A stretch of 64,000 bases of DNA from NCBI GenBank assembly GCA_947462335.1, contig OX381720.1, forward strand, positions 64,749,946-64,813,945. The letters run 5' to 3'. Below the pieces are notes generated by a model. The model was given only the letters and a program-made list of their open reading frames with translations, made no database searches and had not been told where the DNA came from. Origin of the DNA: Harmothoe impar. Lineage: Eukaryota > Annelida > Polychaeta > Phyllodocida > Polynoidae. Shown here piece after piece: positions 22,408-46,326 of the stretch. The position numbers and the translations under genes are program-made. Every line of letters begins with the position of its first letter. Within the stretch, counting starts at the first letter, position 1.

Positions 22408-22413
22408 CCGGTT

Positions 22414-22870
22414 AGTAGTATAGTATGTATCGGAACGGGACTATAGTTAAGTACTGTTTATTACTCAATCGACATGCAGCCAATCAGAGGCCTCCATTTG
22501 GTCACGTGACCGGAAGTGACCTACTTAGGGGATTAGTGGTGACGTCACGTGACCTAGTTAGCCAATCAGAGGCCTCCATTTGGTCACGTGACCGGAAGTG
22601 ACCTACTTAGGGGATTAGCGGTGCATTCTGGGTAACCCTGCAGCCAATCAGAGGCCTCCATTGGGTGACCGGAAGTGACCTACTTAGGGGATGGTGCATT
22701 CTGGGTAACCTACTGACCTACTTAGGGGACCGGAAGTGACGTCATATGACCTAATTTAGGATCACGTGATCGGAAGTGACCTGATGAGTCACGTGACCGG
22801 AAGTGACGTCACACGACTTAATGGCCAACCGGAAGCGACCTGATTGATCACGTGACCGGAAGAAGAAGAA
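22414..22870 (+). repeat. Element 1 left terminal inverted repeat
   Basis: Left TIR. The outer ~330 bp is nearly identical to the right TIR; the inner part is rearranged and ends in GAAGAAGAAG. It is made of sub-repeats carrying AGCCAATCAG (CCAAT box), ACCGGAAGTGAC (ETS-type), TGACGTCA (CRE), GTCACGTGAC (E-box) and GCATTCTGGGTA (resembling the ZNF143/STAF core). It is probably both replication origin and promoter/enhancer (inference). Confidence 0.9.
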
Positions 22871-23088
22871 GTTTTTTTTTTGTTTAGGATCCCGTGACTG
22901 GAAGCGACGTCGTCACATGAGTGACGCTTTAAGAGACTGCGCGACTTACTAGTAAAAGAAGCCGTATGATAATAAAAACACAACAATATTTTCTTTTAAT
23001 TTTTTTTTATTTATTTTTTTTTCAATCTTGATAAACACTCTATTTTTGAAAAGATGCACACGCTTATTTTTTTTTTATTTTTTTTTTT

Positions 23089-26000
23089 TCATATCTCTAA
23101 AGGACTCGTTGTCACACCGTCAGAATGCACGCGACGCTTATAATACAAGTAGCGCACGCCGTCTTTCTCTATGGTGTAGGTGACCATTTTGTTTCGCACC
23201 ACTTTGAAATTTCTATTTACAGCAATGAGAGTTTTTCGTTGGCGAAGAACATCCAAGAAGGCGTCTGGTTCCTGGGGGTTTTGTTTCTTCTGTACGCCTT
23301 TTGCACTCCATTTTTTGGATTTTCTTTCACCGGTGTCGCTGACTCGATCGTAGCAAATGTAAGTCTTAGGGTTGAGACTTAGGATCCCGTCACCTTCCCA
23401 CTCCGCTTTCATGAGCCCCGAAGTTCTCAGATCGTGAAGGTACCGTCTCTCACAACATCCGCCGGGCGGCGCACACCATTCTCGCACTCTTTCCGTTTTT
23501 GTCTTCACGAAAAGCTCTAAGTGCTCGTCGCACACCGCTGTCGGAAGCCACTTTCGTTTCTCTCTGAAGTACGTCTCTCTCAGGCGAGGTTTCACTAGGT
23601 CATCCAACGTGGCACCGCTGAGAGCCATGTAAAGACTGTCGGTGTCCATTTGACAAAGGGCATAATCGCGCCGATCGACGAATCTATCCAAGAAGTCGTA
23701 TGTGAACTCTAACATTTTCAACTTCGCGTACTGGTATACCATGAACCCTATCTGAATAGGGAGGTTGTTCTTGACCGTTTTCGGTTGTAGTCCGACTTCA
23801 AACAGATCGGAAGTCAACTCGGACGCCTTTTTGAAGCGCCACGAATTGGCCAATAGTTCGAACTTCCGACTGTCGGTGTATCTCACCGCCGTGTGTTTTT
23901 CTTTGTTGCAGATTGTTTTACCGTACGTAGCGTTTCCCATTAACTTGTAACAGTCTGACAGAATTTTCTCGTTCTCGTTCACGTCGCCACGTCTTCGCGC
24001 CGCCGTCACTTCGTCCGCGAAACCGGCAAAGGAGCGTTTAGGTAGGTATTCTACCACCAGCTGCACTTTGGTGACTATCAAACCGTGCTCTAAATACCAC
24101 TTGAGAAGCGGCGTTCCCAAGAGAATATTTTTTCCGTGGTAACTCCCTATCAGACATCTCTGAGGCGTGCTCAACAGCTTTTCTTCCTGCGCAAAGTCTG
24201 ACATGTGAGGGCCTATGTCCGATTTTGAAACGGTCGCGTTCTTGAAAACGGGGGTCATTTCTTCGAAGTACTCTCGTAGGTGAGGCGGCGTAGTGATGTC
24301 CACTTGAACTAAACCGAACATTTTCTCCTCTTTCACAGCGGAAAGGATGTCGCTCTCGCTCATCGCGTTTCGAGACACTTTCAAAGCGTCAACCTTCCAG
24401 CGTTGTTGGGAGGCCTTGACCCGCTCATCTCGACGCTTCATCTCTCGCCATTCGCACTCCCACACGACGACCAGCTTGTAACCTAACGCTTTCAAGTAAG
24501 CGCTTACTCTGGTCGTTCTGTCGCGTCTCTCCTCTCTCAGTGAAGCGCACTGATATCGGTGCGACGGTATGCACTCGTGAGCGTGGAACCAACACCCGTG
24601 AAACTGGAAAACCGTATTAGAGGCCGCGTGAAATCCGTCCACGCGAATTCTCCGACAGCCTACCGCCATCTCGCCGCCGTTCAGAGCGTGGCGCAGTTTC
24701 ACGTCGCGGTCGTGCTCTACGAAGCGTAACCACTCCAAAGCGCTGTGAGAGTTTCTTTGCCTGATTTCGGGCTTGAACTCGGTCTCGGGCCGTCTCACCG
24801 CGTAATAGCCCGTGCAGTGCGCTTCGCTCATGCAGCGCAAGTACAGTGAGTTAGCGTCTAGTCCTAGGATGTGTTGGCACGGTCTCGCTTCTTCGCCGTA
24901 CTTGTGCTCCCTTATCCGCGTGGTGCCCTTCTCGTGAAATCTATGGAAGATGATGGAAGGACCGCCGACTAGATTCTCTTTGATCAGAGCATGGAGGACG
25001 GCGTCGAACTGGGGAAACGTTGTGAACGCGTCTACTAGGTTTTGGAAGAGGAAGCGTAAAGTCAAACCGGCGAGAGAAACTCCGTCTTTCAACATGTCGA
25101 TGCCGCGATCTTGGAAAAATTTAGCGTGATTTTTCAGAGCTTCTATGAAAGGTTTCACGTCTTTGTTGTTGTAGTGGATCAAGTAGTCTTCCATAGTTTG
25201 CATCTTCTCGTCGGACCAAACTTTCTGACATGCGGCGTAGTCGGATTCGGACATTTTGACGCCCGTCAGCTCGCTGTCGAAAGCCGATCTCGGCGGCAGC
25301 GTTCTGTTTGCCAGTTTCCTGGTAGACGTCATCCATTCGTAAGGAAAGTGACCTTTCTCTTCGTTCCTGGTGAAAGCTCGCAAATAGGTCGCGTAGTTGT
25401 AACCGGGTGCCAAATAGTTGACTACGTCCAAGAAAACCGTGTGCTGTGTGTAAACCGCCAAGTATTGATTGCTTCTCTTTATGACGCTGAATTCTTGGTT
25501 TCTTCGGTCTCCGGAGGCGAAGAACGAGTGAAGGCGTATTTTGATCAGGTTCAAGTCGTAACGCCCCGAGTTGAAGCCCACCACTGGAGCTTGACGGATG
25601 TATCTCAGAAGACGCTTCTTCAGTTGAACTAACGGGTGTCTGGTCTGAGCCGCAGCGAAGCCGCCTGGAGAAGGGGTGGTGAACGTCGCCTCCTCCAGCA
25701 GGAGAGCTTCACCTATCGCCGCATCTAACTTCGCTAACGTCGGTCGGTAAAGTTCTAGCACAGCTTCCCCGATCGCTTTGGCGTTCTCGTTTATGTGATT
25801 TAAAACTCGGTCCAACAAGGGGTCGGAATCTGCGTCGGACGCTCTGACGAAGCAGACGGGCCCCTCCCACCCCGGAAAGTCGGATGCGACGCTAGCCGAC
25901 AAAGGGACGTGATCCCACAGCAGGGACACGTGCTCCGTCGACGGTTCTTTGCACGGTCTGAAGAAAGCCTCGAAATCGAAGGCGATCTTGTAAGGGTAGA

Positions 26001-27216
26001 TTCCGGAATGTCCGTCGGGGGGAAAAATGGAGAAGTCTGCTAGCGCTTCGAAAATCGTTCTCGAATTTTGGTAGATGCCACCTACGTAGCGCAACTTGAC
26101 TTGTCGGCAAGAGGAAAGCTGGTTCCTGTGTCTCTTCAGCAAGAACTCGGTGGTGAACGCCGCCTTACACTTGCAACATTCGTATATGCCCGCGTACGCG
26201 TTGAAGTCCGTGACGAGAGAGACGTGCAAACCGCCTTTCGCCGTCAGGTGTAGGTTGACTTTACCTCGGGCGGCCACAGTTCTGGAAGGCGGTCTGATCA
26301 GAGTAACGCGTCTTCTCAACTTCCGCCCCGGCACTTGACGCGACGCGGTGTAAACCGCTATTTGTACGTCAAACAAGTTCTCTAACGCGGGTAAGTCGCG
26401 GATGTTCAGACCCGGAAAGGATTCAGGTGTGGCAGCGGGACAGAACTGACGTAACAAATCTGGAGCGCGCTTGCTGGTGTTGTATAAGTGAAAGGAAATG
26501 CAGCGGAAGATGCAGAGGTTGTCCTTGTTGGGAAAATCTAACACGCCGCTTCTCTTTCCAACTCGACCGGCCTGAGTGATCCTACCGCCTATGGGGAATT
26601 CCCCCGGTCCCATGTAAACGCAGATGTTCAAATTGGTAGGAAAAAGAACGTGCCACTTGGTGTCAGCGTCGCAAAGTTTCCGTACCTCCTCGCAAGCGAC
26701 GGTGTTTTGCATCTTTGAGAGGAGCTCTTCCAAAGTTTCTGAATTAGTTACAGTAGGGAGCGGTTGTATGAGAGTTGCGTTGTTCTGGGAGGCGTGGAAG
26801 TAGCGCAGTTTGCTCTTGTCTTCTCTGTGTTGTAACAGTAAGCCTACCGAGAAACCCACTTTGTATCTGAATCTTTGTGTCAAGTGAATGCGACGCATAG
26901 TATCTACAGCGTCACTCAACTCGCCGGTTGGTAGCCTGAAGTTTGTTACACTCACGCGAGTCCCGTGCATCCTGACGCCCGTTTGTATCGCAGGCCAATT
27001 CGCCGTGAACGTTTCCTCCCCGTTCGGTACAGCACATATGCGCGGAGGGACGGTCACCCCGTCCAGAGATTCGCGTCGACAAGCGCTCTTTCGGCAATCC
27101 CCTTCGCCGCATAGAGGGCAAAACTTAGCTACTACTCTACAATTTTCTACGTGTCTCTCGTGGTTGTACGCTCTTTTAAACATTTTGAAACACTTTTCGC
27201 ATACGTACTGTGTCAT
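23089..27216 (-). CDS. polB: Protein-primed family B DNA polymerase (pPolB), Polinton type
   Basis: A 1,375-residue intact polymerase that would copy the linear element from a terminal protein primer. The ATG at 27216 is used; upstream only GTG is in frame. Domains: C2H2-like finger and Cys cluster (6-46); an OTU-like segment (about 228-343, DNLCIFRC with Cys235 and GLHVSL with His331 as possible catalytic pair); a second Cys/His finger (348-370). Exonuclease motifs are ExoI DFE (414-416), ExoII FNSGRYD (548-554) and ExoIII Y682-x3-D686. Polymerase motifs are A DANSLY (Asp787), B KLMGNATYG (1091-1099), C DTDS (1191-1194) and KTY (1284-1286). A Cys/His-rich insert (HGCWFHAHEC) lies between A and B. 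All catalytic residues are present. The stop at 23089 is followed by AATAAAA within 20 bases. It is the downstream gene of a same-strand pair with the PC4-like gene. Confidence 0.93.
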   Translation of the reverse strand: MTQYVCEKCFKMFKRAYNHERHVENCRVVAKFCPLCGEGDCRKSACRRESLDGVTVPPRICAVPNGEETFTANWPAIQTGVRMHGTRVSVTNFRLPTGELSDAVDTMRRIHLTQRFRYKVGFSVGLLLQHREDKSKLRYFHASQNNATLIQPLPTVTNSETLEELLSKMQNTVACEEVRKLCDADTKWHVLFPTNLNICVYMGPGEFPIGGRITQAGRVGKRSGVLDFPNKDNLCIFRCISFHLYNTSKRAPDLLRQFCPAATPESFPGLNIRDLPALENLFDVQIAVYTASRQVPGRKLRRRVTLIRPPSRTVAARGKVNLHLTAKGGLHVSLVTDFNAYAGIYECCKCKAAFTTEFLLKRHRNQLSSCRQVKLRYVGGIYQNSRTIFEALADFSIFPPDGHSGIYPYKIAFDFEAFFRPCKEPSTEHVSLLWDHVPLSASVASDFPGWEGPVCFVRASDADSDPLLDRVLNHINENAKAIGEAVLELYRPTLAKLDAAIGEALLLEEATFTTPSPGGFAAAQTRHPLVQLKKRLLRYIRQAPVVGFNSGRYDLNLIKIRLHSFFASGDRRNQEFSVIKRSNQYLAVYTQHTVFLDVVNYLAPGYNYATYLRAFTRNEEKGHFPYEWMTSTRKLANRTLPPRSAFDSELTGVKMSESDYAACQKVWSDEKMQTMEDYLIHYNNKDVKPFIEALKNHAKFFQDRGIDMLKDGVSLAGLTLRFLFQNLVDAFTTFPQFDAVLHALIKENLVGGPSIIFHRFHEKGTTRIREHKYGEEARPCQHILGLDANSLYLRCMSEAHCTGYYAVRRPETEFKPEIRQRNSHSALEWLRFVEHDRDVKLRHALNGGEMAVGCRRIRVDGFHAASNTVFQFHGCWFHAHECIPSHRYQCASLREERRDRTTRVSAYLKALGYKLVVVWECEWREMKRRDERVKASQQRWKVDALKVSRNAMSESDILSAVKEEKMFGLVQVDITTPPHLREYFEEMTPVFKNATVSKSDIGPHMSDFAQEEKLLSTPQRCLIGSYHGKNILLGTPLLKWYLEHGLIVTKVQLVVEYLPKRSFAGFADEVTAARRRGDVNENEKILSDCYKLMGNATYGKTICNKEKHTAVRYTDSRKFELLANSWRFKKASELTSDLFEVGLQPKTVKNNLPIQIGFMVYQYAKLKMLEFTYDFLDRFVDRRDYALCQMDTDSLYMALSGATLDDLVKPRLRETYFREKRKWLPTAVCDEHLELFVKTKTERVREWCAPPGGCCERRYLHDLRTSGLMKAEWEGDGILSLNPKTYICYDRVSDTGERKSKKWSAKGVQKKQNPQEPDAFLDVLRQRKTLIAVNRNFKVVRNKMVTYTIEKDGVRYLYYKRRVHSDGVTTSPLEI

Positions 27217-27417
27217 GTTTTTTTTCACTCGGTTACCAACTACTTAGCCGTCTAACTATCTATCTATCTATCTAGCCATCTATCAATCTGTCGTCTATGT
27301 AACTATCTTTCTGTCTGCTGTCTGTGTATCCGTCTGTCTGTCTGTCTGTCTGTCTGTCTCATACAGCGTACGTCAAACGCTGTGTGTGTGTGTGCGCGCG
27401 TGAGCGTTGAGCGTCTC
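27217..27417. repeat. Spacer with TCTA, TCTG and TG microsatellites
   Basis: The 201-bp gap between the two minus-strand genes of Element 1 consists largely of (TCTA)n, (TCTG)n and GTGTGTGCGCG simple repeats. No promoter motif stands out, so pPolB may be expressed from a shared or spliced transcript. Confidence 0.6.
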
Positions 27418-29004
27418 TCATTCCGAATCTATGCCGAGATATTTCAGAATGATCTCTGTTTTGTCATCCAACTCTTTGAGCGCTCTGGCGGACAGCGTCA
27501 CCCCCTGCTGTGTGGGTTTTTTGTCAGGACCTTCGTACTTGCGCACGTGGACGAGGTTCTTACCGCTGTAGTAGCTCACAGCTGCGTACACTTCGCCCGC
27601 CTCATCCAGCACTGCGAACCAGGGGGTGTGATTAGGTTTTCCTTGCGCGGCCGCTGTGTCGCGTATGCGCACCACTGCGCGGATATCGGCGATGCGTGCT
27701 ATGAGCTCGCGCAGCGCGTCGGCCGTGAAGTGCACTCGCTTGCTTCTGGTCAGAGACGCCTCTTTCACCTGGCCGTCTTTTGTGTAGCGCGGCCTCCTAG
27801 ACAGTCTAGCCACGTCCTCCCAGATCTCCAGCGTCAAAGCTCCGTCTAAGCAGAACTCTAACCCGAGTGTTTTCTCTGCTTCTTCTCGTCCATCTCCTTC
27901 TTTTTCTTGTATTTTTCTCTTCTTAGTGGGCCTTGTTGTTCTGGAACTCACCTTAGAACGTTTCACACCCGCAGGATGAGTAACACCATCAGCGTGAGCT
28001 GAATCAGCAGCAGAACCGATAGCAGGAGCAGCGTCAGCGCTGGTGGTATCGGAGGTCTCGTTGTTGGAACAGCGCAGCCACACGCCGTCCGTGCTGTGTG
28101 TAGCGGTAGAAGATGAAGCGCCGCCGCCGCCCTCGTAAGGTGGCGGTGAGGGCAGTCGCCACGGACCGGACGGGGGGGCGCTAGCAGTGGAGGAAGTGAG
28201 GTCGAAAGGTCGAAGAGGGAAGCCGAAAAACGTACCGCTCACCCCTTGCCCTTCGGGTTCTTCGTACGCCTCGTCGTCAGCGTCGTTCTCTGTCTCACCC
28301 TGTTGCTGCTCCTCCTCCTCCTCTTCTTCTCGGTTCAGGGGCTGAGTGTCCGAATAGCTGTAACTCTCAGCGCGAGCGGCGTCGAGGGCGTCCGTCGATG
28401 TAGTGGTGGAGGAGAGGGGCTGTGCAACGTGCGGCAGGTCATCAAAGTCATCAACAGTAGTGGGGAGGTAAAAACCCGGTTGCCAGTACTGCGCTGTGCC
28501 AGGAGCGTTGTCGTCAGTAGTAGTAGCAGTAGCAGCAGGTGCAGCAGAAGCAGCCGCAGCAGGCGCAGCCGCAGCAGACGCAACAGTAGCAGGCGCAGCA
28601 GCAGCCTCAGCAGGCGCAGCCGTAGCAAGCGCAGCAGTAGCAGGCGCAGCAGCAGCAGCAGCAGCAGCAGCAGCGGCAGGCGGGACGGCGGTAGCAGCGG
28701 CAGCGCGCTTAGCAGCAACGTGTACCGTCGCGAGTGTAACAACGTCGCTAGCACGACGACTGCTACCAGTAGTACTACTAGTACTACTACCACTACTACT
28801 ACTACTGCTACTACTAGTGCTACTGCTACTACTACTACTACTACTACTGCCGCGAGCGCTCGCTACAGCAGGAGGGTGATAAGACCAACCGGCTGCGGCG
28901 GTAGTCTCATGTTCAGTAGCAAGAGCAGGCACTGACGCTAAACGAACGCTGTTCCGCGTAGTCTTCTTGTTCTTGAACGCCGCTAGCTGTTGTCTTTTGC
29001 TCAT
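27418..29004 (-). CDS. Putative ssDNA-binding protein with PC4-like C-terminal domain
   Basis: A 528-residue protein. The ATG at 29004 has a near-ideal start context (CACCACCATGA) and a TATA box about 60 bases upstream, so the longer frame upstream (no ATG) was not used. The N-terminal two thirds is low complexity: poly-Ser, then an Ala/Pro stretch, then a Glu/Gln acidic run. A basic bipartite nuclear-localisation-like cluster (RPTKKRK) follows around residues 355-365. The last ~150 residues are compact and ordered. GKNLVHVRKYE...KPTQQGVTLSARALKEL resembles the PC4/Sub1 fold (GK-x-VHVRKY, KKG-V-L), and the preceding half (RRPRYTKDG...VHFTADALRELI) looks like a second diverged copy. Protein-primed replicons usually encode such an ssDNA-binding protein. 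The PC4 assignment rests on motif resemblance only. Confidence 0.6.
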   Translation of the reverse strand: MSKRQQLAAFKNKKTTRNSVRLASVPALATEHETTAAAGWSYHPPAVASARGSSSSSSSSSSTSSSSSSSSGSSTSSTTGSSRRASDVVTLATVHVAAKRAAAATAVPPAAAAAAAAAAAPATAALATAAPAEAAAAPATVASAAAAPAAAASAAPAATATTTDDNAPGTAQYWQPGFYLPTTVDDFDDLPHVAQPLSSTTTSTDALDAARAESYSYSDTQPLNREEEEEEEQQQGETENDADDEAYEEPEGQGVSGTFFGFPLRPFDLTSSTASAPPSGPWRLPSPPPYEGGGGASSSTATHSTDGVWLRCSNNETSDTTSADAAPAIGSAADSAHADGVTHPAGVKRSKVSSRTTRPTKKRKIQEKEGDGREEAEKTLGLEFCLDGALTLEIWEDVARLSRRPRYTKDGQVKEASLTRSKRVHFTADALRELIARIADIRAVVRIRDTAAAQGKPNHTPWFAVLDEAGEVYAAVSYYSGKNLVHVRKYEGPDKKPTQQGVTLSARALKELDDKTEIILKYLGIDSE

Positions 29005-29064
29005 GGTGGTGACTGTAGAGAGCAGCAAAAAAGAATGAGTGAGTGAATGGAGGTTTCCAAGCCC

Positions 29065-29072
29065 CTTATATA
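29065..29072 (-). promoter_or_regulatory. TATA box of the PC4-like gene
   Basis: TATATAAG on the minus strand, 61 bases upstream of the ATG at 29004. A start about 28 bases downstream would leave a 5' UTR of about 35 bases. Confidence 0.6.
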
Positions 29073-29087
29073 CGCCTTCTCGCTTCT

Positions 29088-29460
29088 AGAGCTAAGCTAC
29101 TTACCGACCCTGTTCAGCTGCCGCCGGCTGGCCGGCGGCCATTCACAAAGAGAAACAAAAAGACATAAGGCATGACGTTTTCAGCTGGATCCCTTTCCCC
29201 CCCCCCCTCTTTTGAGAGATCGACTGTGATGATGAGCTAAGCCGCTTACCACCCTGTTCAGCAATTCAACGCGCATTAGCTGTATAAAGGGTTAAGCGGT
29301 TGCTGCCTGCCGTCGACTGACCGGCGGCGGCCATTCACAAAGACATAAGGTATGACGTTTTCAGCTGGATCCCTTTTTGAGGGATCCACTGTGGTGAGCT
29401 AAGCCGCTTACCACCCTGTTCAGCCATTCAGCGCGCGTTAGCTGTATAAAGGATTAACGG
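29088..29460. repeat. Triplicated promoter-like block between divergent genes
   Basis: The block GAGCTAAGCCGCTTACCACC...CTGTTCAGC occurs three times (about 29087, 29234, 29396), each with GACGTTTTCAGCTGGATCCC and GGCCATTCACAAAG in the intervening sequence. TGTATAAAG (TATA-like, plus) occurs at 29281 and 29443. It lies between the minus-strand PC4-like gene and the plus-strand death-domain gene and is probably regulatory. Confidence 0.6.
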
Positions 29461-29973: not shown

Positions 29974-30057
29974 GCTCTCATTTCTGTTGGAAAAAAAACA
30001 TATCGCCTCTGACCCCAGTAACGGCTACTACCACCACCACCGCCACCACCACCACCG

Positions 30058-30097
<40 letters not shown>

Positions 30098-30123
30098 TGC
30101 CGCCGCCGCCAAGACGAGACGAG

Positions 30124-30873
30124 ATGGCTCAAGCTATTCCACTTTCAAGCTCGCCTTCACCGCCCGGTGCGCCTGAAAAAAAGTTAATGCGGCTTGACGA
30201 CGTGAGACGCGGCGCGAGGCAGCAGACCGATGATGGGGAGACCCGACAGGTAGGACAGCGGCGGTTAGCCTATAGCGACGCCTTGCTTCGTCAACTAGGT
30301 AAAGAGTTGAGCGGCTGTTGGAGAGAGTTGGGCAGTAGCTTAAAAGTCAGCGCCGCCCGTATGGATGCTCTAGTAGAGCGCAGTGTCAAGACACCGGAGG
30401 AGCTGTGTACGGCGATGTTCCGAGTGTGGTGGGGTGAAACCCCGCATCGTCATAGATGGGGCGAGCTCGGTCGCGTCTTCACCCGCATTAGACGCATGGA
30501 ACTGTTGGCTCAGTGGATGGCCCTTCTCCACAGACAGGGGTTGGATTTCGAAAACCCCGACTCGCGCGCGATGCATAAGCACTTGGGCACCCTCGGCAGA
30601 CGTCTGGGTAGCAGGTGGAAAGAGGTGGGGGACCATTTAAAATTGTCGCCTGAGAGGTTAGATAAGATCGCTGAAGAATGCGAATACGGAGGAAGTCCCG
30701 CTGAGTGGGCCTTCCGAGTGTTGAAAATGTGGCAAGATGAAGCTGACGGCGCCGGCGGTACGCCTTTTGAACTCCTTCGAGTGTTGACTGAGGACATGGG
30801 AAAGTTTGGCCTCGGCATCGCGATATTACTTGACTTTATCAAGCAAGAAACAACGAGAACGACGGACATGTGA
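30124..30873 (+). CDS. Tandem death-domain protein carried by Element 1
   Basis: A 249-residue protein. The ATG at 30124 has G at -3 and +4. After a 50-residue disordered, basic N-terminus come two copies of a six-helix death-fold pattern. Copy 1 (about 53-134) reads LGKELSGCWRELGSSLKVSAARMDAL...RVWWGE...LGRVFTRIRRMELLAQWM. Copy 2 (about 151-240) reads LGRRLGSRWKEVGDHLKLSPERLDKI...VLKMWQDE...LLRVLTEDMGKFGLG. The W-x-x-L/V-G-x-x-L signature, the central Trp after the acidic helix and the final amphipathic helix match death domains of apoptosis and innate-immune adaptors. No caspase, kinase, TIR or nucleotide-binding domain is attached, so it could only bridge or block other death-domain proteins. 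The role (suppressing host cell death or signalling) is inference from domain content and location. Confidence 0.75.
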   Translation: MAQAIPLSSSPSPPGAPEKKLMRLDDVRRGARQQTDDGETRQVGQRRLAYSDALLRQLGKELSGCWRELGSSLKVSAARMDALVERSVKTPEELCTAMFRVWWGETPHRHRWGELGRVFTRIRRMELLAQWMALLHRQGLDFENPDSRAMHKHLGTLGRRLGSRWKEVGDHLKLSPERLDKIAEECEYGGSPAEWAFRVLKMWQDEADGAGGTPFELLRVLTEDMGKFGLGIAILLDFIKQETTRTTDM

Positions 30874-31114: not shown

Positions 31115-31275
31115 CCTTAGAGTGCCCCCCCCCTAGAGTGCCCCCCTCCCCCCCCTCCCCCCCTCCCCCACTCGCCCCATGCATCCTAAAAGCGCCCCCC
31201 TCCCCATGCATGTTAAAAGGGCCCCCCTCCCCCCCTCCCCTCCCCTCCTTCCCCTCCTTCCCCCTTATACACTCT
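31115..31275. repeat. C-rich subterminal tract of Element 1
   Basis: Runs of 5-9 C separated by T, with ATGCATCYTAAA spacers. The complementary strand has many G-runs able to form quadruplexes. The same kind of tract, including ATGCATCTTAAA and GTGCCCCCCTCCCC, occupies the equivalent position in Element 2 (45648-45765). Confidence 0.75.
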
Positions 31276-31515: not shown

Positions 31516-31936
31516 CTTCTTCTTCTTCCGGTCACGTGATCAATCAGGTCACTTCCGGTCACGTGATCCTCAATGAGGTCACTTCCGGTTGGCCATTAGG
31601 TCATGTGACGTCACTTCCGGTCCCCTAAGTAGGTCAGTAGGTTACCCAGAATGCACCATCCCCTAAGTAGGTCACTTCCGGTCACCCAATGGAGGCCTCT
31701 GATTGGCTGCAGGGTTACCCAGAATGCACCGCTAATCCCCTAAGTAGGTCACTTCCGGTCACGTGACCCAATGGCGGCCTCTGATTGGCTAACTAGGTCA
31801 CGTGACGTCACCACTAATCCCCTAAGTAGGTCACTTCCGGTCACGTGACCAAATGGAGGCCTCTGATTGGCTGCATGTCGATTGAGTAATAAACAGTACT
31901 TAACTATAGTCCCGTTCCGATACATACTATACTACT
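31480..31936 (-). repeat. Element 1 right terminal inverted repeat
   Basis: Mirror of the left TIR, beginning inside at a (CTT)n run (31485-31527). Over the outer ~330 bp I count only a few differences from the left copy (for example GGCCGCCATTGGG versus GGCCTCCATTTGG). Confidence 0.9.
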
Positions 31937-31942
31937 CCGGTT

Positions 31943-36840: not shown

Positions 36841-36846
36841 CATAGT

Positions 36847-37390
36847 AGTAGTATAGTATGTATCGGAACGGGACTATAGTTAACTACTGTTTATTACTCA
36901 ATCGACATGCAGCCAATCAGAGGCCTCCATTTGGTCACGTGACCCCCTCATTTGCATAATTACGTAATAGGCCACGCCCCCTCATTTGCATAATTACGTA
37001 ATAGACCACGCCCCCTTGATCACCAGCCAATCAGAGGCTTCCATTTGGTCACGTGACCCCCTCATTTGCATAATAGGCCACGCCCCCTTGATCACGTGAC
37101 CCTTTCATTTGCATAATAAGCCACGCCCTCTTGATCACCAGCCAATCAGAGGTCGCCATTTGGTCACGCGACCCCCTCATTTGCATAATAGACCGTGCCC
37201 CCTTGATCACGTGACCCCTTCATTGACATGATAGACCACAACAACATCACGTGACTATCTTTGTTTGTAAACAACACCACGTGGCTCTCTTTGTTTGTAA
37301 ACAACACCACGTGGCTCTCTTGTTTGTAAATAAGACCTACTAAGTTTAGGCATAGGTAACAGCAGTGTTTGTAAATAACGCCTACTATGT
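36847..37390 (+). repeat. Element 2 left terminal inverted repeat
   Basis: The outer ~170 bp matches the right TIR closely; farther in, the two are mosaics of the same sub-repeats. It contains five ATTTGCAT octamers, TTACGTAA (PAR-bZIP-like), CCACGCCC (KLF/Sp-like), AGCCAATCAG, GTCACGTGACC and, innermost, GTAAACAA forkhead-like motifs (37268-37300). Confidence 0.85.
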
Positions 37391-37392: not shown

Positions 37393-38604
37393 TCAGTCAT
37401 AGGTGTCTAGAGCAGCAGCAGCAGCAGCATCTTCAGCAGCAGCAGCAGCGGCAGCCGCGTCATAAGTGTCTAGAGCAGTAGCCACGTCATAGATGACTAG
37501 TGCAGCAGCAGCAGCAGCATCTTCAGCAGCAGCAGCAGCAGCAGCAGCATCATAGGTGTCTAGAGCAGGAGTAGCAGGAGTGTCATAGGTGTCTAGAGCA
37601 GTGGCAGCAGCAGCAGCAGCAGCATCATAGGTGTCTAGAGCAGGAGTAGCAGGAGCGTCATAGGTGTCTAGAGCAGTGGCAGCAGCAGCAGCAGCAGCAT
37701 CATAGGTGTCTAGAGCAGGAGTAGCAGGAGCGTCATAGGTGTCTAGAGCAGTGGCAGCAGCAGTAGCAGCAGCGGCAGCAGCAGTAGCAGCAGCAGCATC
37801 AACAGTAGCTTCAGCAAAAGCAGCAGCAGCCGCGTCATAGGTGTCTAGAGCAGCGGCAGCAGCATCTTCAGCAGCAGCAGTAGCAGCAGCGGCAGCAGTA
37901 TCTTCAGCAGCAGCAGCGTCATAGGTGTCTAGAGCAGCAGCGTCATAGGTGTCTAGAGCATCAGCCGCAGCAGCAGCAGCATCTTCAGCAGCAGCAGCAG
38001 CGGCAGCAGCAGCCTCATCAGCAGCAGTAGCAGCAGCAGCAGCAACATCTTGAGCATCAACAGCATCTTCAGCAAAAGCAGAAGCCCGTAACTTAGCATC
38101 ATGGGCATCAGTCATAGCCGTAACAGCGACACTGCGACTAGCATAAGCAAAACAGGCTATTTTTTTAGCAGCTGTACAAGCATTAATAGCATTAGCCCTA
38201 GCAGCAGCCGCAACAGCGACACTTTTAGCAGACGTTGCAGCATCAGTAGCAGCAGCATCGGTAGCAAGAGCGGAAACAGTAGCAAAAAGATTAGCAGCAC
38301 GAGCAGCAGCGGCGAGAGTAACAGCAACGTTGTTAGCAGCATTGGCAACTTCGTATGCTACATGTGTAGCACGAACAGCGATACGAGCTTCACGTTTTGC
38401 ACGAGCAGCAGCATTAGCTGCAGAAGTAGCCCTCACACTTTCCAGCCACCCGTACGAATCTTGATAAAAACCAACCTCCACCTTGCTACTTGTTGACTCA
38501 TCAGTAAACATGGACGTCTCCTCATGTGGTGTTGTCGCGGCTCTGTAGTAGTGTTGGGATTGCTCACATTCGGTAGAACGTAGAGTGATTCCTGATGACG
38601 CCAT
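37393..38604 (-). CDS. Alanine-rich repeat protein of Element 2
   Basis: 403 residues, intact, with a good start context (CAGCATGG). Residues 1-60 are of ordinary composition (MASSGITLRS, FYQDSYGWLESVRA). From about 62 it becomes an Ala-dominated, mostly helical sequence (AARAKREARIAVRATHVAYEVANAA). The last ~200 residues are (A)n runs punctuated by ALDTYDA, repeated about ten times. The DNA repeats are codon-based (GCTGCTGC and CTAGACACCTATGA units), so expansion has shaped it. I recognise no family. Ala-rich low complexity also marks the PC4-like protein of Element 1, but no homologous domain is visible. The frame ends almost at the TIR. A structural or disordered protein is possible. Confidence 0.55.
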   Translation of the reverse strand: MASSGITLRSTECEQSQHYYRAATTPHEETSMFTDESTSSKVEVGFYQDSYGWLESVRATSAANAAARAKREARIAVRATHVAYEVANAANNVAVTLAAAARAANLFATVSALATDAAATDAATSAKSVAVAAAARANAINACTAAKKIACFAYASRSVAVTAMTDAHDAKLRASAFAEDAVDAQDVAAAAATAADEAAAAAAAAAEDAAAAAADALDTYDAAALDTYDAAAAEDTAAAAATAAAEDAAAAALDTYDAAAAAFAEATVDAAAATAAAAAATAAATALDTYDAPATPALDTYDAAAAAAATALDTYDAPATPALDTYDAAAAAAATALDTYDTPATPALDTYDAAAAAAAAEDAAAAAALVIYDVATALDTYDAAAAAAAAEDAAAAAALDTYD

Positions 38605-38639
38605 GCTGAAGGTGGTTGAAGAAGTGTGTGGGACTCATG

Positions 38640-39508: not shown

Positions 39509-39579
39509 GAGCCTCAATTGTTCTTGCAACAGCACTTCACCACCGGTACACTATCAGTCACGAGGCAGATGTTTGCGGC

Positions 39580-39615: not shown

Positions 39616-40255
39616 GTGAGTAGATCACTTTTTTTCCCCTAAAAAACCAAAAAAAAAACCCCACTTATGACTCAGGTATGTATATGTAGCACTGTTAGTG
39701 TAAGTACACAGTAGAATCTACTGTACTATAGACTCGGCCCTCTGAAGACGGCGGAGCGCGTTAATGCGCGGGTCTGTGGCGGCGTCACTTGTTTTTTATT
39801 CTAACTAAAAAGTCAGAAGTCGATCTACGACCTATCAAAGACAAATTTGTGATAAGTTCAAACTAAATAAGAGACAGTTTGAGCGTCTCTTAGTCGCTGT
39901 CAAAGATGCGAATAACGAACGCGCTGAGGGCGGGGTTCAGGTCACGTATAGTTCCTTGCTCTTTCGTCAGATGGCGCCACAATAGGGGATTTGTACATTC
40001 CTACGATGCTCGCGAACATTTCAACGCATAATGAGCTATATAGGCAACAAAGTGTGCTTCTGAATATATTAAAATATAAAAACAATTCAATATTGTGTAT
40101 TTCTGATAGAAATGAGGCAGTTTCTTTGAATACCAACTAAACTATAGCGAGATGAAAAATACCACACCATATCTAAGGCTTTATAAAAGATACATAGGCA
40201 GAAACTCTCGCCGAGTCGGTAATCTGAAAAACGAACCAACTCGTTGTGCCACAAG

Positions 40256-40470
40256 GGCCCCCACCCAACGGGGGCCTTTTGAGCTCAGTCATGTTGTTTC
40301 TCAACACTAGGTGTAATTAATTACGCCCATGTTGAGTAGCATCTACTAACCAACTGACAGTGTCAGTTGGTTGGCCCCTCTTTAGGGGCCACACAATAAA
40401 TAAAGAATAGAGACCTAAGGGAACGTTCACAAACGTCCACCCTTCCTACGGGGTGGGTGGGTCTTTGGGT
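40256..40470. ncRNA. Cluster of strong hairpins, possible structured RNA
   Basis: Consecutive perfect or near-perfect stems: GGCCCCC/GGGGGCC then TTTT (40256-40280); CTCAACA/TGTTGAG (40300-40336); ACCAACTGACA/TGTCAGTTGGT (40349-40371); GGCCCCT-CTTT-AGGGGCC (40373-40390), followed by ACACAATAAA; and CCACCC/GGGTGG (about 40438-40470). Such density is not expected by chance. The fourth stem resembles a histone 3' stem-loop with one extra pair, followed by a polyadenylation signal at 40395-40400. The producing gene is unknown. Confidence 0.45.
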
Positions 40471-40656
40471 TTAGTGACAAAACAGCGACATGTCAGCTCT
40501 CTTTTTTTTTTCCAAGTCTACATATTATTTATGATTAAAAAATTAAAAAAAAAAAACCACGATAATAAAGTGCGCTGATCAAAAACTGAATAGAAAAATA
40601 ACCAAAAATAGGTTGGTAGCTGATCGGTCGTTGTCACACGGTGCAGAAAATTTACT

Positions 40657-41930
40657 GCATATCGGACCAGGGGATAGTCTGGCAGCGACCCGCCACCCCG
40701 TTCACAAGCTGTGTACAGCACCCCGTTTCTCTTTGTCCATATTGGCTAAAAAAAAACAGGACATTGTTGACTTGGCTATTTTACCCGTCTGGGTCTTATT
40801 ATTTAAACACCTCGTGTTGACCCTGTGGGGCAGCGGGTACATGGAATAAACGTGTCCAAGTGCACGCTATCTAACACATAACCGAAGGTTACTGAGTTAT
40901 GTAATAATAGTTATGTAATAATAACTGACCTATGAGGTCGCCAGTCAGTTTGCCGTGATTATTTTGACACACTCTCAGTTACTCGTAGCACATCTAATAC
41001 ATAATTAGACTCAGCCTCATATAAGACAGTCTCGGCCACGCAGGCTGCATATCGGACCAGGGAGATAGTCTGGCAGTGACCCACCAGCCCGTCCACAACC
41101 TGTGTACAGCACCCCGTGTCTCTTTGTCCATATTGGCTAAAAAAAACTAAAAAAAACAGGTCATTGTTGACTTTGGCTATTTTACCCGTCTGGGTCTTAT
41201 TATTTAAATCACCTCGTCTTGACCCTGTGGGGCAGTGGGTATATGGAATAACCGTGTCCAAGTGTACTCTATCTAACACATAACCAAAGGTTACTGAGTT
41301 ATGTAATAATAACCACCCTATGATCCTATGAAGGCGCTAGTCAGTTTGCCGTGATTATTTTGACATACTCTCAGTTACTCGTAGGGTATCTAATACATAG
41401 TTAGACTCAGCATCATATAAGACAGGCTCGGCCACGCCGGCTGCATATCGGACCAGGGAGATAGTCTGGCAGTGACCCACCAGCCCGTCCACAACCTGTG
41501 TACAGCACCCCGTGTCTCTTTGTCCATATTGGCTAAAAAAAAAAAACCAAAAAAAAACAAAACAGGTCATTGTTGACTTTGGCTATTTTACCCGTCTGGG
41601 TCTTATTATTTAAATCACCTCGTCTTGACCCTGTGGGGCAGTGGGTATATGGAATAACCGTGTCCAAGTGTACTCTATCTAACACATAACCAAAGGTTAC
41701 TGAGTTATGTAATAATAACCACCCTATGATCCTATGAAGACGCCAGGCAGTTTGCCGTGATTATTTTGACATACTCTCAGTTACTCGTAGGGTATCTAAT
41801 ACATAGTTAGACTCAGCATCATATAAGACAGGCTCGGCCGCGCCAGCCGCATATCGTACCAGAGGGATAGTCTGGCAGCAACCCGCCATCCCGTCTACAA
41901 TCTGTGTACAGCAGTCTGGACCAGACCACC
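40657..41930. repeat. Three and a half tandem ~400-bp repeats in Element 2
   Basis: Units begin GCATATCGGACCAGG at about 40657, 41047, 41443 and 41849 (periods about 390-406). Each carries GTCTCTTTGTCCATATTGGCTAAAAAA, a poly-A-rich interruption and TTTGCCGTGATTATTTTGAC. The minus strand of each unit has a similar open frame (QYGQRDTGCCTQVVDGLVGHCQTISLVRYAA...). That conservation may simply reflect recent duplication. Confidence 0.8.
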
Positions 41931-42410
41931 AACTCTGGGTATAGCATTCTGGATGCCTGTAGCAAGACTGGATCTAACCCTTTAATAGTCGCATAGCGCT
42001 TTAATATGCAGTGCCCGTTGTCGTCATAAGTCATGAATGCGGCACTCAGAGTTCCTCACCAGGGCTGCATGCATGCATACACTGGCATATCGACAAAGGG
42101 CGTAGCGCATTAAAGCACTATTGCCACCTTTAGCATTAAAGCGCTGAGGGTTTTATTTTTTTGATAGTGTAGAAACCAATATCTGTCTAATTAAACCCCT
42201 TATCAGTGCTGTTTTTTTTCACATACAAAAAGAATTAGGTAATGGCGCTGCAGTACTCTGAAAAGCGGTGGCGGTGAATTTCCATTTAGATCTTGAAAAG
42301 GGGGGCGGTCAGATGTCGTCAAGGCTCTGATAAGTAGGGCAGTTAAAATCATATGATTACATTGAGCTAATTTTCTTGCTGAAAGGAATGAATAATTGTA
42401 TTTGTATAAA

Positions 42411-42411
<1 letters not shown>

Positions 42412-42506
<95 letters not shown>
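42412..42506. repeat. (AC)n microsatellite
   Basis: About 47 uninterrupted AC dinucleotides inside Element 2. Confidence 0.98.
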
Positions 42507-42507
<1 letters not shown>

Positions 42508-42737
42508 ACACCTGATGATCTCCACACGATGACCTGATTGCTCTTCCTAAAAAAAAAAATGCCCAACTCGATCTACCTACTCAACAGGGTTTCAGTGTAT
42601 AGCGTATTAGGGTTTTTCTGATGCGTATATTATATTGAGATTGATTTTCAACTTTTGTGATCAGTGGTTGGTCCTTAAAAGGACCGTTTGGTAGAGAGAG
42701 GGTCGCAGGGACCTTGCTGCTGAAGCGGAGGGCGTGG

Positions 42738-43091
42738 TCATAACGCGTGGCAGTCCTTCAGCAGCTCCTCCAGCACGGCGGGCGGTAAGCCTTCCTCCAT
42801 GCAGACTTGCTGCTTGACCTGCTCCACGCACCGGCGGATGAGTTGATCAGCGACGTTCTCGATCAGCTCATCCACCACACCCTCTGCTTCAGCAGCAGTC
42901 CGCTGTCTCTCCTCTCTCTGTAGCGAGGCTACGAACTGCTTCTCCACGGCCGCATCGATCATAGATCGAGAAACGGCCACGAAGTTCTGTCTCTCCGCCT
43001 CCTCTCTCTGTTGCACGGCTACGAATTCCTTCTCCACGGCCGCATCGATCATAGATCGAGAAACGGCCACGAAGTTCACTCCGTGAGCCAT
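42738..43091 (-). CDS. Small helical protein of Element 2 with an internal duplication
   Basis: 117 residues from the ATG at 43091 (AAAATGG, good context; only GTG lies farther upstream). Residues 6-35 and 36-64 are a duplicated unit: NFVAVSRSMIDAAVEKEFVA followed by Q/L-QREE, then the same with Q for E. It is strongly helical and charged, then continues into a non-repeated helical C-terminus (VVDELIENVADQLIRRCVEQVKQQV...LEELLKDCHAL). A TATA box (TATAAAAG, minus, about 43279-43286) lies roughly 190 bases upstream. I do not recognise the family; coiled-coil oligomerisation is plausible. The unbroken frame, start context and TATA box support a real gene. Confidence 0.6.
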   Translation of the reverse strand: MAHGVNFVAVSRSMIDAAVEKEFVAVQQREEAERQNFVAVSRSMIDAAVEKQFVASLQREERQRTAAEAEGVVDELIENVADQLIRRCVEQVKQQVCMEEGLPPAVLEELLKDCHAL

Positions 43092-43278
43092 TTTGTCGAA
43101 CTGACTTCCTAGCCACCTGAGAGATGCTGACGTCACACTATTTTCGACGACGCTATGACGCGCGCGAGGTAGACAGACGACGTCGTTTCACTTCCTTATT
43201 TGGAGTTTGGGATCTTTTGACACCGAAGTCATACCGTACGGTCGCGATAAAGCAACTAGTGTTGAAAAGCGTGCCGGT

Positions 43279-43286
43279 CTTTTATA
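43279..43286 (-). promoter_or_regulatory. TATA box upstream of the small helical protein
   Basis: TATAAAAG on the minus strand within CTTTTATAAGCGCC (plus). Confidence 0.45.
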
Positions 43287-43289
43287 AGC

Positions 43290-44349
43290 GCCGGAGTATA
43301 AGAGCCTCCAAATGTTTTTTCTCAAGCACTAAAATCGCGACTTTGAATAAGCGCCAGCGCCTGGCTTGTATATAGCTCCTGAGTAAGAACTTCACCGAAT
43401 TGAAAAGCCCTCCCTCAGAGCTCTTAATCGCGACAGTACGGTACAAATCTGATGTCAACCCGCGCCAAAAACAAAAAGGGTGTTCCGGTCACACGTACCT
43501 ACGACGAGCGACCTTCAGCTATCACCACGTGAAGAGTGGGAAATAAATTTTGTACGGCAAGAAAACTGAAAACTGATAACGATTCCATTAGATAAGTATT
43601 TGGTTCCAATCTATGGCGAGATATTTCCACCAAAGCGATTGATTTATATGTCTGTAAGGTTCAGCTCTCCAACACTCTCCAATGTCCGCCAGTGCACGAC
43701 GGTCGCCGCCCATCATTAGTCACAACTAAACTTCTGCTGGAGAGTGAGAGTTACGTTGAGTCTTGAGGTGCGCAGAGATACTATCTGCCGCAGCCTGATT
43801 TTAGTTCCACGCTATTTAGATAAACGCCCCATTTAAAATCTCTCTCTCGATCCTAGTAAAGGAAAAAAAAGGCTAGAGTTTATCATGGACGCGTCTCAGT
43901 TTTAGTCAAGCTGTAAAGTGAAGAACCAGAGCTTGTACATATTCCCACGTGAGGGGTGACCCCGCGGGGCGTTCAGTTAGTACTGAGTCTATACTCAAGG
44001 TCAAGTTCCACTCTCTAAACAGAGCTTTAGCGACTCTGTCATATAGACTAGACTGCGCGCGCGATTTTTTTTTTGCTGAAGCAGCTAATCGATGGAAGAG
44101 TAGAGAACAGGTGCTCGACCAAAAATCTGCTTCAGAGGCTTGTTATCAGGTATTAACAGTTAAATCAAAATATTTCAAAACATCCAGAAAAGCAGAATAA
44201 CATGTCCTACGGGCTACAGCCGGGCACTGACGAGCAGACGGCGCTGACGTCATTTCAATCAGGTCACAGGGCTCTTTAGACACCTTTTCTGTAAGACCCG
44301 TCTCATACCTTAGTATATAATACCGTAAACACCGGTGATTAGTATATGA
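43290..44349. other. Element 2 interior without supported gene
   Basis: Short frames only, none with convincing composition and start. Confidence 0.4.
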
Positions 44350-44419
44350 TCACATTGGCAGTCGCGGATCCACGAAGAGGCTGAATAAGCCTCGAGCGGA
44401 CCCGCCACTTGCAATGTGA
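44350..44419 (+). ncRNA. Pre-miRNA-like hairpin in Element 2
   Basis: A 70-base segment folds into one stem. The outer 22-base arms (TCACATTGGCAGTCGCGGATCC and GGACCCGCCACTTGCAATGTGA) pair at 18 of 22 positions with small internal mismatches. An inner stem GAGGCT-GAATA-AGCCTC caps it. Length and mismatch pattern are like animal microRNA precursors; expression is unknown and the reverse strand would fold too. Confidence 0.45.
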
Positions 44420-45329
44420 CATAATCTTACCATGCGCTTTTGTTTTGTTTTTGTTTCTATTTACAACAGCAAACATTTCAAACAACCTATTGTTTTTTTT
44501 TAAAATGATGAAAAATCAGCCCAAAAAAAAAAAGTAAACATTTTAGAGCTAAATTTGTGGAGGATAGCCGGACATGCTGATGTCACTAGACCCCTAAATT
44601 CGATATGGTGACATGGGCATTTTCTTAAAATTCGATACGACGACACGGGCACGGACATCTAAGTGACATGGGACATGTGGCATTTCTTGAGTCCCACATG
44701 TGCCATGGACCATAGTGACATGAGGAAAAAAAAAAATGTTCAAAGAGTGCATCAGAAAAGTGCCATTTCAAGCCTAAACATTTCGCCAAATTTTTTTTTC
44801 TCTTGGATGGTACTCGGCTTTGCAGTGTCTGGGTCCTTAAAAATGTACCAGAATGCTCAAATTCGGGTTCTAAATATTTTCAAAAAAACGTTTTCTCCCT
44901 TAGTGACGTGTGACATGGGCATTTCTTAAATTCGACATACGGCTGCATGGGGAGGACCCACCCGTCAAGGGCCCCATGATGACTCATACCCGCCGCGTTC
45001 AAACTAGCGTGGTGGTTATAGGTAGACCTTCTTTCAGTATCCACGTGACCAGATCCATCGCCGTCTCTTGAGCAACAGTAACCGAGGTAACTAGGGTTAT
45101 TGTTATCCGGGCCGTAAGACGACAGTCTAAGACGGTGTGTGGTCGCGTTTTGCTCTCCCTAATACTCTAATTCAAGTCGAGTTACCGCTAACCCCTACAA
45201 AAAGAGGGTCATTTGTGTAATTCAAAAGTCGTTCCTTTGTTAGCAATGAGGGGGTCGTTCTATTCATTGATTTTTTTTTTTTTTTTTTTTTTTGTTTACA
45301 ACAACAAGTCAAAGTACAGTCAATCAACC
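44420..45329. other. Element 2 interior without supported gene
   Basis: Contains AAATTCGATACGACGACACG-type motifs (44595-44650, 44925-44945) and homopolymer A/T runs; no gene supported. Confidence 0.4.
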
Positions 45330-45367
45330 GAGATCCTTTCTACTCCGTGGGGGTGTAGAAGGATCTC
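45330..45367. repeat. Hairpin near the Element 2 right end
   Basis: GAGATCCTTTCTAC and GTAGAAGGATCTC pair with a single T bulge around an 11-base loop. Confidence 0.75.
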
Positions 45368-45565
45368 CCCCCTGAGGTTACAAAGTCACCTCTTTATTTA
45401 AAGGGTTACGAGTCGCAAAGTCGCTTTCGCTTTCGCTTACAAGTCACAAAGTCGCATGAAATATTCAAGTCAAAAAGTCAAATTCATCAACTATCAGCAC
45501 AGTCGTTTGAAAAGCATCAAGTCACCGAAAAACTCCTCTACAGTCACCTCCGACTCGCCTCCTCC

Positions 45566-45587
45566 CTACCCCCCTAAAGGGGGGTAG
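45566..45587. repeat. Hairpin preceding the C-rich tract of Element 2
   Basis: CTACCCCCC-TAAA-GGGGGGTAG, with flanking CCTC/GAGG extending the stem. It occupies the place of the 42-bp palindrome in Element 1. Confidence 0.8.
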
Positions 45588-45647
45588 AGAGGAAGCGATT
45601 CTCTAGAGATCAGATAATTTTTTTTTTTCTCTCGAGCAGACCCCAAA

Positions 45648-45765
45648 GGCCCCCCTCCCCCCCAAGTGCCCGCCCACCCCATAAATAGTGCCCCCCTCCC
45701 CCCCTCCCCTCCCCATGCATCTTAAAGTGCCCCCCTCCCCCCCTCCCCTCCCCTCGCCCCTTATA
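45648..45765. repeat. C-rich subterminal tract of Element 2
   Basis: C5-C7 runs separated by T, with GTGCCCCCCTCCCC and ATGCATCTTAAA, as in Element 1 at 31115-31275. Confidence 0.75.
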
Positions 45766-45784
45766 GAAGCCTCCCATTAGCTAG

Positions 45785-46320
45785 TCCAAGTCATGTGACC
45801 AAAAGGGAAGCGTAGTCTGTCTATTGTCTATATTATGCAAATGAGGGAGGGGGTCAAGTCACGTGACCAAGGGGGTGTGGCTTATTCTCTAAATAAAGAG
45901 CGCTTCCGGTCACGTGACCAAGAGGGTGTGGTCCTATTATGCAAATGAGGGGGTCACGTGATCCATGATTATGCAAATGAGGGAGTCACCTGACCAAATG
46001 GAAGCCACTGATTGGCTGGTGATCAAAGGGGCGTAGTCTACTATGCAAATGAGGGGGTCACGTGATCAAGGGGGCGTGGTCTATTATGCAAATGAGGGGG
46101 TCACGTGGGAGTCACGTGACCAAATTGCGGCCCTGATTGGCTGGTGATCAAGGGGGCGTGGCCTATTACGTAATTATGCAAATGAGGGGGCGTGGCCTAT
46201 TACGTAATTATGCAAATGAGGGGGTCACGTGACCAAATGGAGGCCTCTGATTGGCTGCAGGTCGATTGAGTAATAAACAGTACTTAACTATAGTCCCGTT
46301 CCGATACATACTATACTACT
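45785..46320 (-). repeat. Element 2 right terminal inverted repeat
   Basis: Mirror and mosaic of the left TIR, with seven TATGCAAAT octamers, TTACGTAA, GGGCGTGG, GTCACGTGACC and CTGATTGGCTG. The last ~100 bases match both Element 1 ends. Confidence 0.85.
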
Positions 46321-46326
46321 CATAGT

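What the first reader, a model, noticed from the sequence alone, without database searches (positions are those of the whole stretch)
22408..46326. Two intact elements with shared ends and nearly equal length: a possible two-component protein-primed replicon
Element 1 (9,523 bp) and Element 2 (9,474 bp) each have perfect but different 6-bp target duplications, identical terminal ~100 bp and the same right-end architecture, yet unrelated interiors. Only Element 1 carries the polymerase. Established parallel: bidnaviruses (bipartite, pPolB-encoding ssDNA viruses) have two segments with common terminal sequences, only one of which encodes pPolB. A length match within 0.5% could be a packaging constraint or chance. 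I infer a helper/dependent pair or a segmented system.
Basis: partly seen in the sequence, partly recalled or inferred. Interest (0 to 1): 0.9.

Follow-up and report, generated by a model that had tools for sequence, protein, structure and literature searches.

The report
Virus-like element split between partners
An animal genome holds thousands of mobile elements with the same ends, in which the gene that copies DNA sits on one kind of element while the virus-shell and insertion genes sit on another, as if a Maverick-type DNA virus had been cut into separate pieces that depend on each other.

Summary
In detail: two elements (9,523 and 9,474 bp), perfect 6-bp target duplications, 97/98 bp shared termini, unrelated interiors, polymerase only on Element 1. 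The host assembly (1.51 Gb) holds 10,412 exact copies of the 37-bp end. In two samples, 70 of 74 distinct terminus pairs are 8.3-10.7 kb, 4 are longer, none is under 8 kb; interiors fall into a few classes. Class A (Element 1; PolB marker 2,889 copies) carries an OTU-type protein-primed PolB with a Vsr-like insert, a PC4-like protein and a death-domain protein. Class E, outside the window (10.3-10.5 kb; about 1,570 marker copies), carries the rest of a Maverick/adintovirus in Maverick gene order without PolB: ATPase, integrase, capsid-protein homologues, protease. None of 40 marker-typed pairs holds both modules; one larger unit does, by nesting. A and E share 98/98 terminal bp. Element 2 (class B) and class C have no recognised core gene. 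Best reading: a Maverick lineage split into complementary components, with satellite or accessory components. Capsid fold, virions and extrachromosomal forms are untested. No split Polinton was found in the papers searched.

The parts
22408..22413 (.). Element 1 left target-site duplication CCGGTT
22414..22755 (+). Element 1 left terminal inverted repeat; starts AGTAGTATAG; outer 98 bp are the shared terminus
23089..27243 (-). [quoted passage not shown]
   Evidence: Pfam PF03175 28 bits (cut-off 25.8); 16 database matches including one of 100%; alignment
24397..24612 (-). Vsr (very short patch repair) endonuclease-like insert, residues 878-949
   Evidence: PDB 1odg/1vsr: phmmer E 0.003, profile E 7e-7
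27418..29085 (-). Ala/Ser-rich protein with C-terminal PC4-like (ssDNA-binding) domain, 555-codon ORF
   Evidence: PF02229 E 1.3e-4, 21.8 bits, below cut-off 25; one database match at 65% over 66% of the query
30022..30873 (+). Death-domain protein, 283 codons (two Death stretches)
   Evidence: PF00531 31.9 bits, cut-off 22.6
31144..31263 (+). C-rich block with ATGCAT, shared right-end feature
31595..31936 (-). Element 1 right terminal inverted repeat
31937..31942 (.). Element 1 right target-site duplication CCGGTT
36841..36846 (.). Element 2 left target-site duplication CATAGT
36847..37034 (+). Element 2 left TIR (188 bp at 98%; about 394 bp at 87%)
37393..38634 (-). Alanine-rich ORF, 413 codons; 366-466 codons from its Met in 6 of 7 class B copies, 148 in the seventh
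42738..43187 (-). 149-codon ORF, found in 7 of 7 class B copies by tblastn, open from its Met in 6 of 7; no family
45642..45761 (+). C-rich block with ATGCAT, right-end feature of Element 2
46133..46320 (-). Element 2 right TIR
46321..46326 (.). Element 2 right target-site duplication CATAGT

Best explanation
Elements 1 and 2 are integrated components of one multi-component Maverick/adintovirus-like system. Class A (Element 1) supplies replication: a protein-primed PolB and probably a PC4-type single-strand DNA binding protein. Class E, elsewhere in the genome, supplies an rve integrase with a chromodomain, a packaging ATPase, capsid proteins and a maturation protease. The terminus common to the classes (84-98 bp, beginning AGTAGT) is the protein-primed origin and integrase end, so the two classes serve each other and also mobilise Element 2 (class B) and class C, which behave as satellites or accessory components. 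The near-fixed length of 8.3-10.7 kb is best explained by a packaging limit. Shown: shared ends, TSDs, separation of the modules, open ORFs, recency. Inferred: action in trans, SSB role, packaging, virions.
For: 10,412 exact termini. 40 pairs on C1 (0-5.26 Mb): 9 with the PolB marker, 10 with the MCP marker (9 of these also the integrase marker), 10 class B, 8 class C, 2 class D, 1 unclassified, none with both modules. Of 72 MCP markers on C1 below 104 Mb, 3 lie within 20 kb of one of 100 PolB markers against 2.6 expected. 39 of 46 integrase markers (C1, 0-30.5 Mb) have an MCP marker 2.6-3.2 kb away; 1 of 46 has PolB within 12 kb, a nested A-in-E insertion. Class E gene order ATPase-122aa-433aa-INT-404aa-147aa-MCP-protease fits the published Maverick modules ppolb/atp/pm/pz and int-mcp-pw-Mcp-pro without pPolB (PMC8097293 section 7). 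Six class E ends compared with E1 agree at 98 of 98 terminal positions. (AGT)2//(ACT)2 ends and 6-bp TSDs are those of vertebrate Mavericks. PolB ORF intact in 6 of 8 class A copies; the 10 pairs among the 5 equal-length copies give dN/dS 0.19-0.43. None of 74 distinct pairs under 8 kb.
Against: The interior of only one class E copy was read. The MCP assignment rests on homology to turtle F54H12.2-like proteins, gene order, and my recollection of what those proteins are; Pfam and PDB searches gave no capsid match and the fold prediction did not finish. The protease of five distinct class E copies differs by 1-3 of 450 bases where it differs, all nonsynonymous, so no constraint is seen there. 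Protease, chromodomain and PC4 matches are below the Pfam cut-offs. Classes are not wholly unrelated: B and C share about 6-16% of their interiors, C and D about 10-18% per strand, D and A about 41%. 20 of 100 and 28 of 100 sampled termini had no partner. No extrachromosomal or encapsidated DNA was examined.
Confidence: 0.75

Rival explanations
1. A and E are both deletion derivatives, and a rare full-length one-piece Maverick with the same ends supplies everything, so the classes seen are ordinary non-autonomous elements.
For: Typical vertebrate Mavericks are single elements of 16,862 +/- 1,678 bp. A more distant relative appears unsplit: P0013 (PolB) and P0024 (MCP) are both reported on a contig of 12,657 bp.
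Against: None of 40 typed pairs holds both modules. In the second sample 34 of 36 pairs are at most 10.7 kb, too short for the 4.1 kb PolB gene plus the 6.8 kb capsid module plus ends. Of the four longer pairs in the two samples, three hold the class B marker and one, 13.8 kb, is untyped. With 0 of 74 the 95% upper bound would be 4%. Both modules stand at about 1,570-2,900 marker copies with recent, mostly open copies.
Confidence: 0.12
2. A two-component transposon that moves only inside the nucleus: modules split as in the best reading, but the capsid genes of class E no longer make particles and element length reflects a few founders. (Overlaps with the best reading on everything but particles.)
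For: Only integrated copies were seen; the protease substitutions are all nonsynonymous. Class-specific founder lengths explain part of the tightness.
Against: ATPase, integrase, MCP, protease and the other module ORFs are uninterrupted in the copy read. Class C, with three or six ORFs of 100-111 codons and none longer in the two copies listed, stays at 9.2-9.7 kb in 8 of 8 C1 pairs, one further pair with the C marker being 8.5 kb, and no short internal-deletion forms occur among 74 pairs.
Confidence: 0.3
3. One reading: Elements 1 and 2 themselves form the two essential segments.
For: Shared ends, close lengths; the Ala-rich ORF of class B stays open at varying length in 6 of 7 copies.
Against: Element 2 has no recognised replication, integration or capsid gene among the ORFs scanned; class B has the lowest marker count of the four classes counted (1,049); the missing functions lie on class E.
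Confidence: 0.05

Closest known systems
Mavericks/Polintons of vertebrates (PMC8097293, passages and section 7)
   Same: (AGT)2//(ACT)2 ends, 6-bp TSD, long TIR, pPolB, rve integrase, ATPase, MCP homologue, adenovirus-type protease, same order of the int-to-protease module
   Different: Published intact ones are single elements of 12.7-24.6 kb (mean 16.9), with an average of 22 and median of 8 copies per host; here pPolB and the rest are on separate 9.5 and 10.5 kb elements with thousands of marker copies, plus elements without core genes
Adintoviruses (PMC11071296 and PMC8363768, passages)
   Same: PolB with N-terminal OTU-like domain, integrase with chromodomain, hexon and protease homologues
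   Different: The three described in the Drosophila paper are single contigs of 13.3-14.6 kb carrying PolB, integrase and virion genes together or nearly so
Bidnaviridae and Vesanto virus (PMC4061559, PMC8363768, passages)
   Same: Polinton-derived pPolB; several segments with similar inverted ends; optional or satellite segments considered by the authors
   Different: Parvovirus-type capsid and helicase and ssDNA, segments of 3.3-5.8 kb in Vesanto virus; no such genes found here, and these components are integrated with TSDs
Acheta domesticus segmented densovirus (PMC10267136, abstract and outline)
   Same: Replication and capsid cassettes split over two segments, one per particle
   Different: ssDNA parvovirus; lack of integrase and pPolB is from recall

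Membership tests
Maverick/Polinton | 6-bp TSD and TIRs with (AGT)2//(ACT)2 ends | tested here: met
   18 of 20 fetched elements with perfect TSD; compared
Maverick/Polinton | protein-primed PolB | tested here: met
   class A only (fragments in D)
Maverick/Polinton | rve integrase | tested here: met
   class E only, PF00665 50.2 bits (cut-off 32.6)
Maverick/Polinton | packaging ATPase | tested here: met
   class E, PF02456 24.3 bits (cut-off 21)
Maverick/Polinton | adenovirus-like protease | tested here: inconclusive
   PF00770 20.7 bits against cut-off 21.3; adenain E 0.26 in PDB; position fits
[quoted passage not shown]
   MCP query matches 35 database proteins incl. turtle F54H12.2-like; no PDB or Pfam capsid match; fold job unfinished; minor capsid protein by gene order only
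Maverick/Polinton | core genes together on one element | tested here: not met
   0 of 40 pairs with both modules; one larger unit with both is a nested insertion
Bidnaviridae | parvovirus-type helicase and capsid genes | tested here: not met
   no such Pfam match among 18 ORFs scanned from E1, E2 and E; smaller ORFs and classes C and D not scanned
Bidnaviridae | segments with common termini, one encoding pPolB | tested here: met
Bidnaviridae | encapsidated ssDNA genome | not testable with these tools
   needs virion DNA

The most novel reading that the evidence does not exclude
The first segmented or multipartite integrating linear dsDNA virus: a Maverick-lineage virus whose genome is two chromosomes (replication, and virion plus integration), each under a packaging limit near 10.7 kb, accompanied by a cloud of satellites kept at packaging length, with all components able to integrate into the germ line at thousands of copies.
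Probability: 0.5. Interest if true: 0.95.

Novelty: new variant of a known kind. Interest (0 to 1): 0.9.

Why it matters
Polintons are proposed as a root of many eukaryotic DNA viruses, and bidnaviruses show that their polymerase can end up in segmented viruses. A Maverick split into complementary, size-matched, co-amplified elements would show genome segmentation arising in an integrating dsDNA lineage, would link transposon helper/satellite biology to virus segmentation, and would make the open question whether Mavericks form particles testable through a length limit imposed even on nearly non-coding components.

Tried and rejected
A DNA similarity search of the terminus in the host genome gave nothing, not even the window's own copies (the tool skips very common words); replaced by pattern counts. 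IMG/VR scans with PolB, its alignment and two terminus patterns found no relative. No other copy or fragment of E1 or E2 was found in the rest of the window (blastn E<=1e-3). A shared gene between E1 and E2 was rejected: outside the ends and the C-rich block the matches are Ala-codon repeats. Pairs of 13-16 kb as unsplit elements rejected for three of four: they hold the class B marker (the C1 96.9 Mb pair by its position in the list); the 13.8 kb pair on C2 lies beyond the marker lists and is untyped. The one TIR-bounded unit with both modules is an A element nested in an E element (20,074 - 9,539 - 6 = 10,529 bp). dN/dS on class B ORFs is uninformative. A C-rich block as a universal feature was rejected: strong near one end in A and B, weaker in C and D, not found by this scan in the E copy. 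In one search the two broken PolB copies and the five pairs with the length-differing copy were left out of dN/dS. Host species not identified.

Full report
Observation. Both elements are real and exact: Element 1 22414-31936 with CCGGTT duplications, Element 2 36847-46320 with CATAGT duplications. The outer 98 bp agree at 97 of 98 positions between the elements, after which the subterminal repeats differ. Interiors share little but alanine-codon repeats and a short C-rich block.

Element 1 genes. The 1,384-codon ORF is a family B polymerase (PF03175) with 16 database matches, one of them 100% identical. The alignment shows conserved exonuclease and polymerase motifs (motif names recalled) and an N-terminal region with invariant C244 and H340, which I read as the OTU-type domain described for polinton pPolBs (PMC11071308 passages); that these are the catalytic residues is inference. 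Residues 878-949 resemble Vsr endonuclease (profile E 7e-7). A PC4-like protein (below the curated cut-off) and a death-domain protein complete the set. No integrase or capsid family matched among the 8 ORFs of the two elements scanned, and the seven class E proteins tested have no tblastn match (E<=1e-5) in any of the 22 class A-D elements.

Genome-wide. The 37-bp end occurs 5,195 times forward and 5,217 times reverse, control 0; if all were paired at 9.6 kb this would be about 5,200 elements and 3.3% of the assembly. Of 100 listed sites on contig C1, 80 form 40 +/- pairs under 20 kb and 20 stay unpaired; 38 of 40 pairs are 8.7-10.54 kb. A second sample, selected by a self-complementary TSD class (190 + 169 sites in all; 100 listed, on C1-C5), gave 36 pairs with 28 sites unpaired: 36 of 36 have exactly matching duplications, 34 of 36 are 8.3-10.7 kb, none is under 8 kb. 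Two pairs are common to both samples, so 74 are distinct; 70 are 8.3-10.7 kb and 4 are longer.

Classes. Twenty elements under 10 kb were fetched; 18 of 20 have perfect TSDs. With E1 and E2 they fall into A (8), B (7), C (5, in two forms) and D (2). The classes are discrete but not wholly unrelated: D shares about 41% with A, B and C share about 6-16%, C and D about 10-18% per strand. One 10.5 kb element was read in two halves. Using class markers (3 mismatches allowed), the 40 C1 pairs are A 9, E 10, B 10 (including the 13.2 and 15.9 kb ones), C 8, D 2, and 1 unclassified of 10.46 kb. Marker-typed class E pairs are 10,344-10,537 bp. Whole-genome marker counts: PolB 2,889, MCP 1,563, integrase 1,585, B 1,049, C 2,624. 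Their sum exceeds the number of intact end pairs, so copies with damaged ends or truncations must be included.

Class E. In order on one strand: ATPase (Adeno_IVa2 24.3 bits), 122 aa, 433+ aa, integrase (rve 50.2 bits, chromodomain below cut-off), 404 aa, 147 aa, 439 aa MCP homologue, 263 aa adenain-like protease ORF (20.7 bits, cut-off 21.3). In vertebrate Mavericks one module has ppolb, atp and pz, with pm between atp and pz, and the other int, mcp, pw, Mcp and pro (PMC8097293 section 7), so E reads as a Maverick core without pPolB; pm, pz, mcp and pw are assigned by position only. The MCP search found 35 proteins, among them turtle F54H12.2-like proteins at 34-35%; that those are Maverick/adintovirus capsid proteins is recalled. 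Profile searches of PDB and Pfam gave no capsid match. One distant MCP homologue (P0024, 45%) and one PolB homologue (P0013, 47%) are both reported on a contig of 12,657 bp, which I take to be one unsplit relative (inference). Seven of 16 PolB matches have a longest contig of 9.3-10.06 kb, compatible with, but no proof of, split relatives.

Separation. On C1 below 104 Mb, 72 MCP markers and 100 PolB markers are as close as uniform placement predicts (3 against 2.6 within 20 kb). On C1 0-30.5 Mb, 39 of 46 integrase markers have an MCP marker 2.6-3.2 kb away; one has PolB within 12 kb, explained by a class A element (L050) nested in a class E element.

Activity. The PolB ORF is intact in 6 of 8 class A copies; the five equal-length copies differ at 2-26 of 4,125 positions with dN/dS 0.19-0.43, on few changes. 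The right 1.5 kb of four further class E copies is 99.1-99.8% identical to the copy read, their left 1.5 kb 94.5-98.7%. Against constraint: the protease of the five distinct E copies differs only by nonsynonymous changes, 1-3 per pair where it differs (L006 and L052 are the same element). Class B keeps its Ala-rich ORF open in 6 of 7 copies.

Mechanism. Published work expects repeated terminal trinucleotides to serve jumping-back during protein priming in Mavericks (PMC8097293 passage). The common 84-98 bp with AGTAGT is therefore the likely origin on every class (C ends agree at about 82 of the first 84 positions, one C end carries an indel). The same ends and 6-bp TSDs on elements with no integrase imply that the integrase acts in trans (inference). 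A length window shared by coding and nearly non-coding classes, with no short deletion forms in the samples, points to size selection; a constrained genome size was also inferred for vertebrate Mavericks. Packaging itself is not shown.

Novelty. The listings of searches of an open-licence PMC library, and passages of the papers named above, showed no segmented or split Polinton, Maverick or adintovirus; the founding adintovirus paper is not held, and subscription papers and Repbase were not searched.

Noticed in passing
window 24397-24612: Vsr mismatch-endonuclease-like domain inside the polymerase; weak Vsr matches also in Pfam scans of relatives P0007 and P0015, below the cut-off
   Followed up: partly
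L034, L049: Class D: chimeric element with PolB fragments, an Ala-rich ORF ending in a death-domain-like stretch, and an inverted duplicated 331/383-codon ORF of unknown function
   Followed up: partly
G000:C1:3023555-3043628: Class A element inserted within a class E element; outer length after subtraction is 10,529 bp, as other class E elements
   Followed up: yes
window 54414-58311: Long ORFs that look, by eye, like a DIRS-type retroelement (reverse transcriptase/RNase H-like 645 codons and a recombinase-like ORF)
   Followed up: no
window 47811-49029: 11-bp tandem repeat array (64 copies) followed by an array (45 copies) of nearly its reverse complement, a large inverted satellite
   Followed up: no
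window 5177-7501, 50835-53051, 62130-64000: Several kilobase-scale tandem repeat arrays
   Followed up: no
window 22480-22760 and 36944-37240: Class-specific subterminal repeats with CACGTG, TGACGTCA, CCAATCAG and ATTTGCAT motifs, reminiscent of factor sites in adenovirus ITRs (recalled)
   Followed up: no
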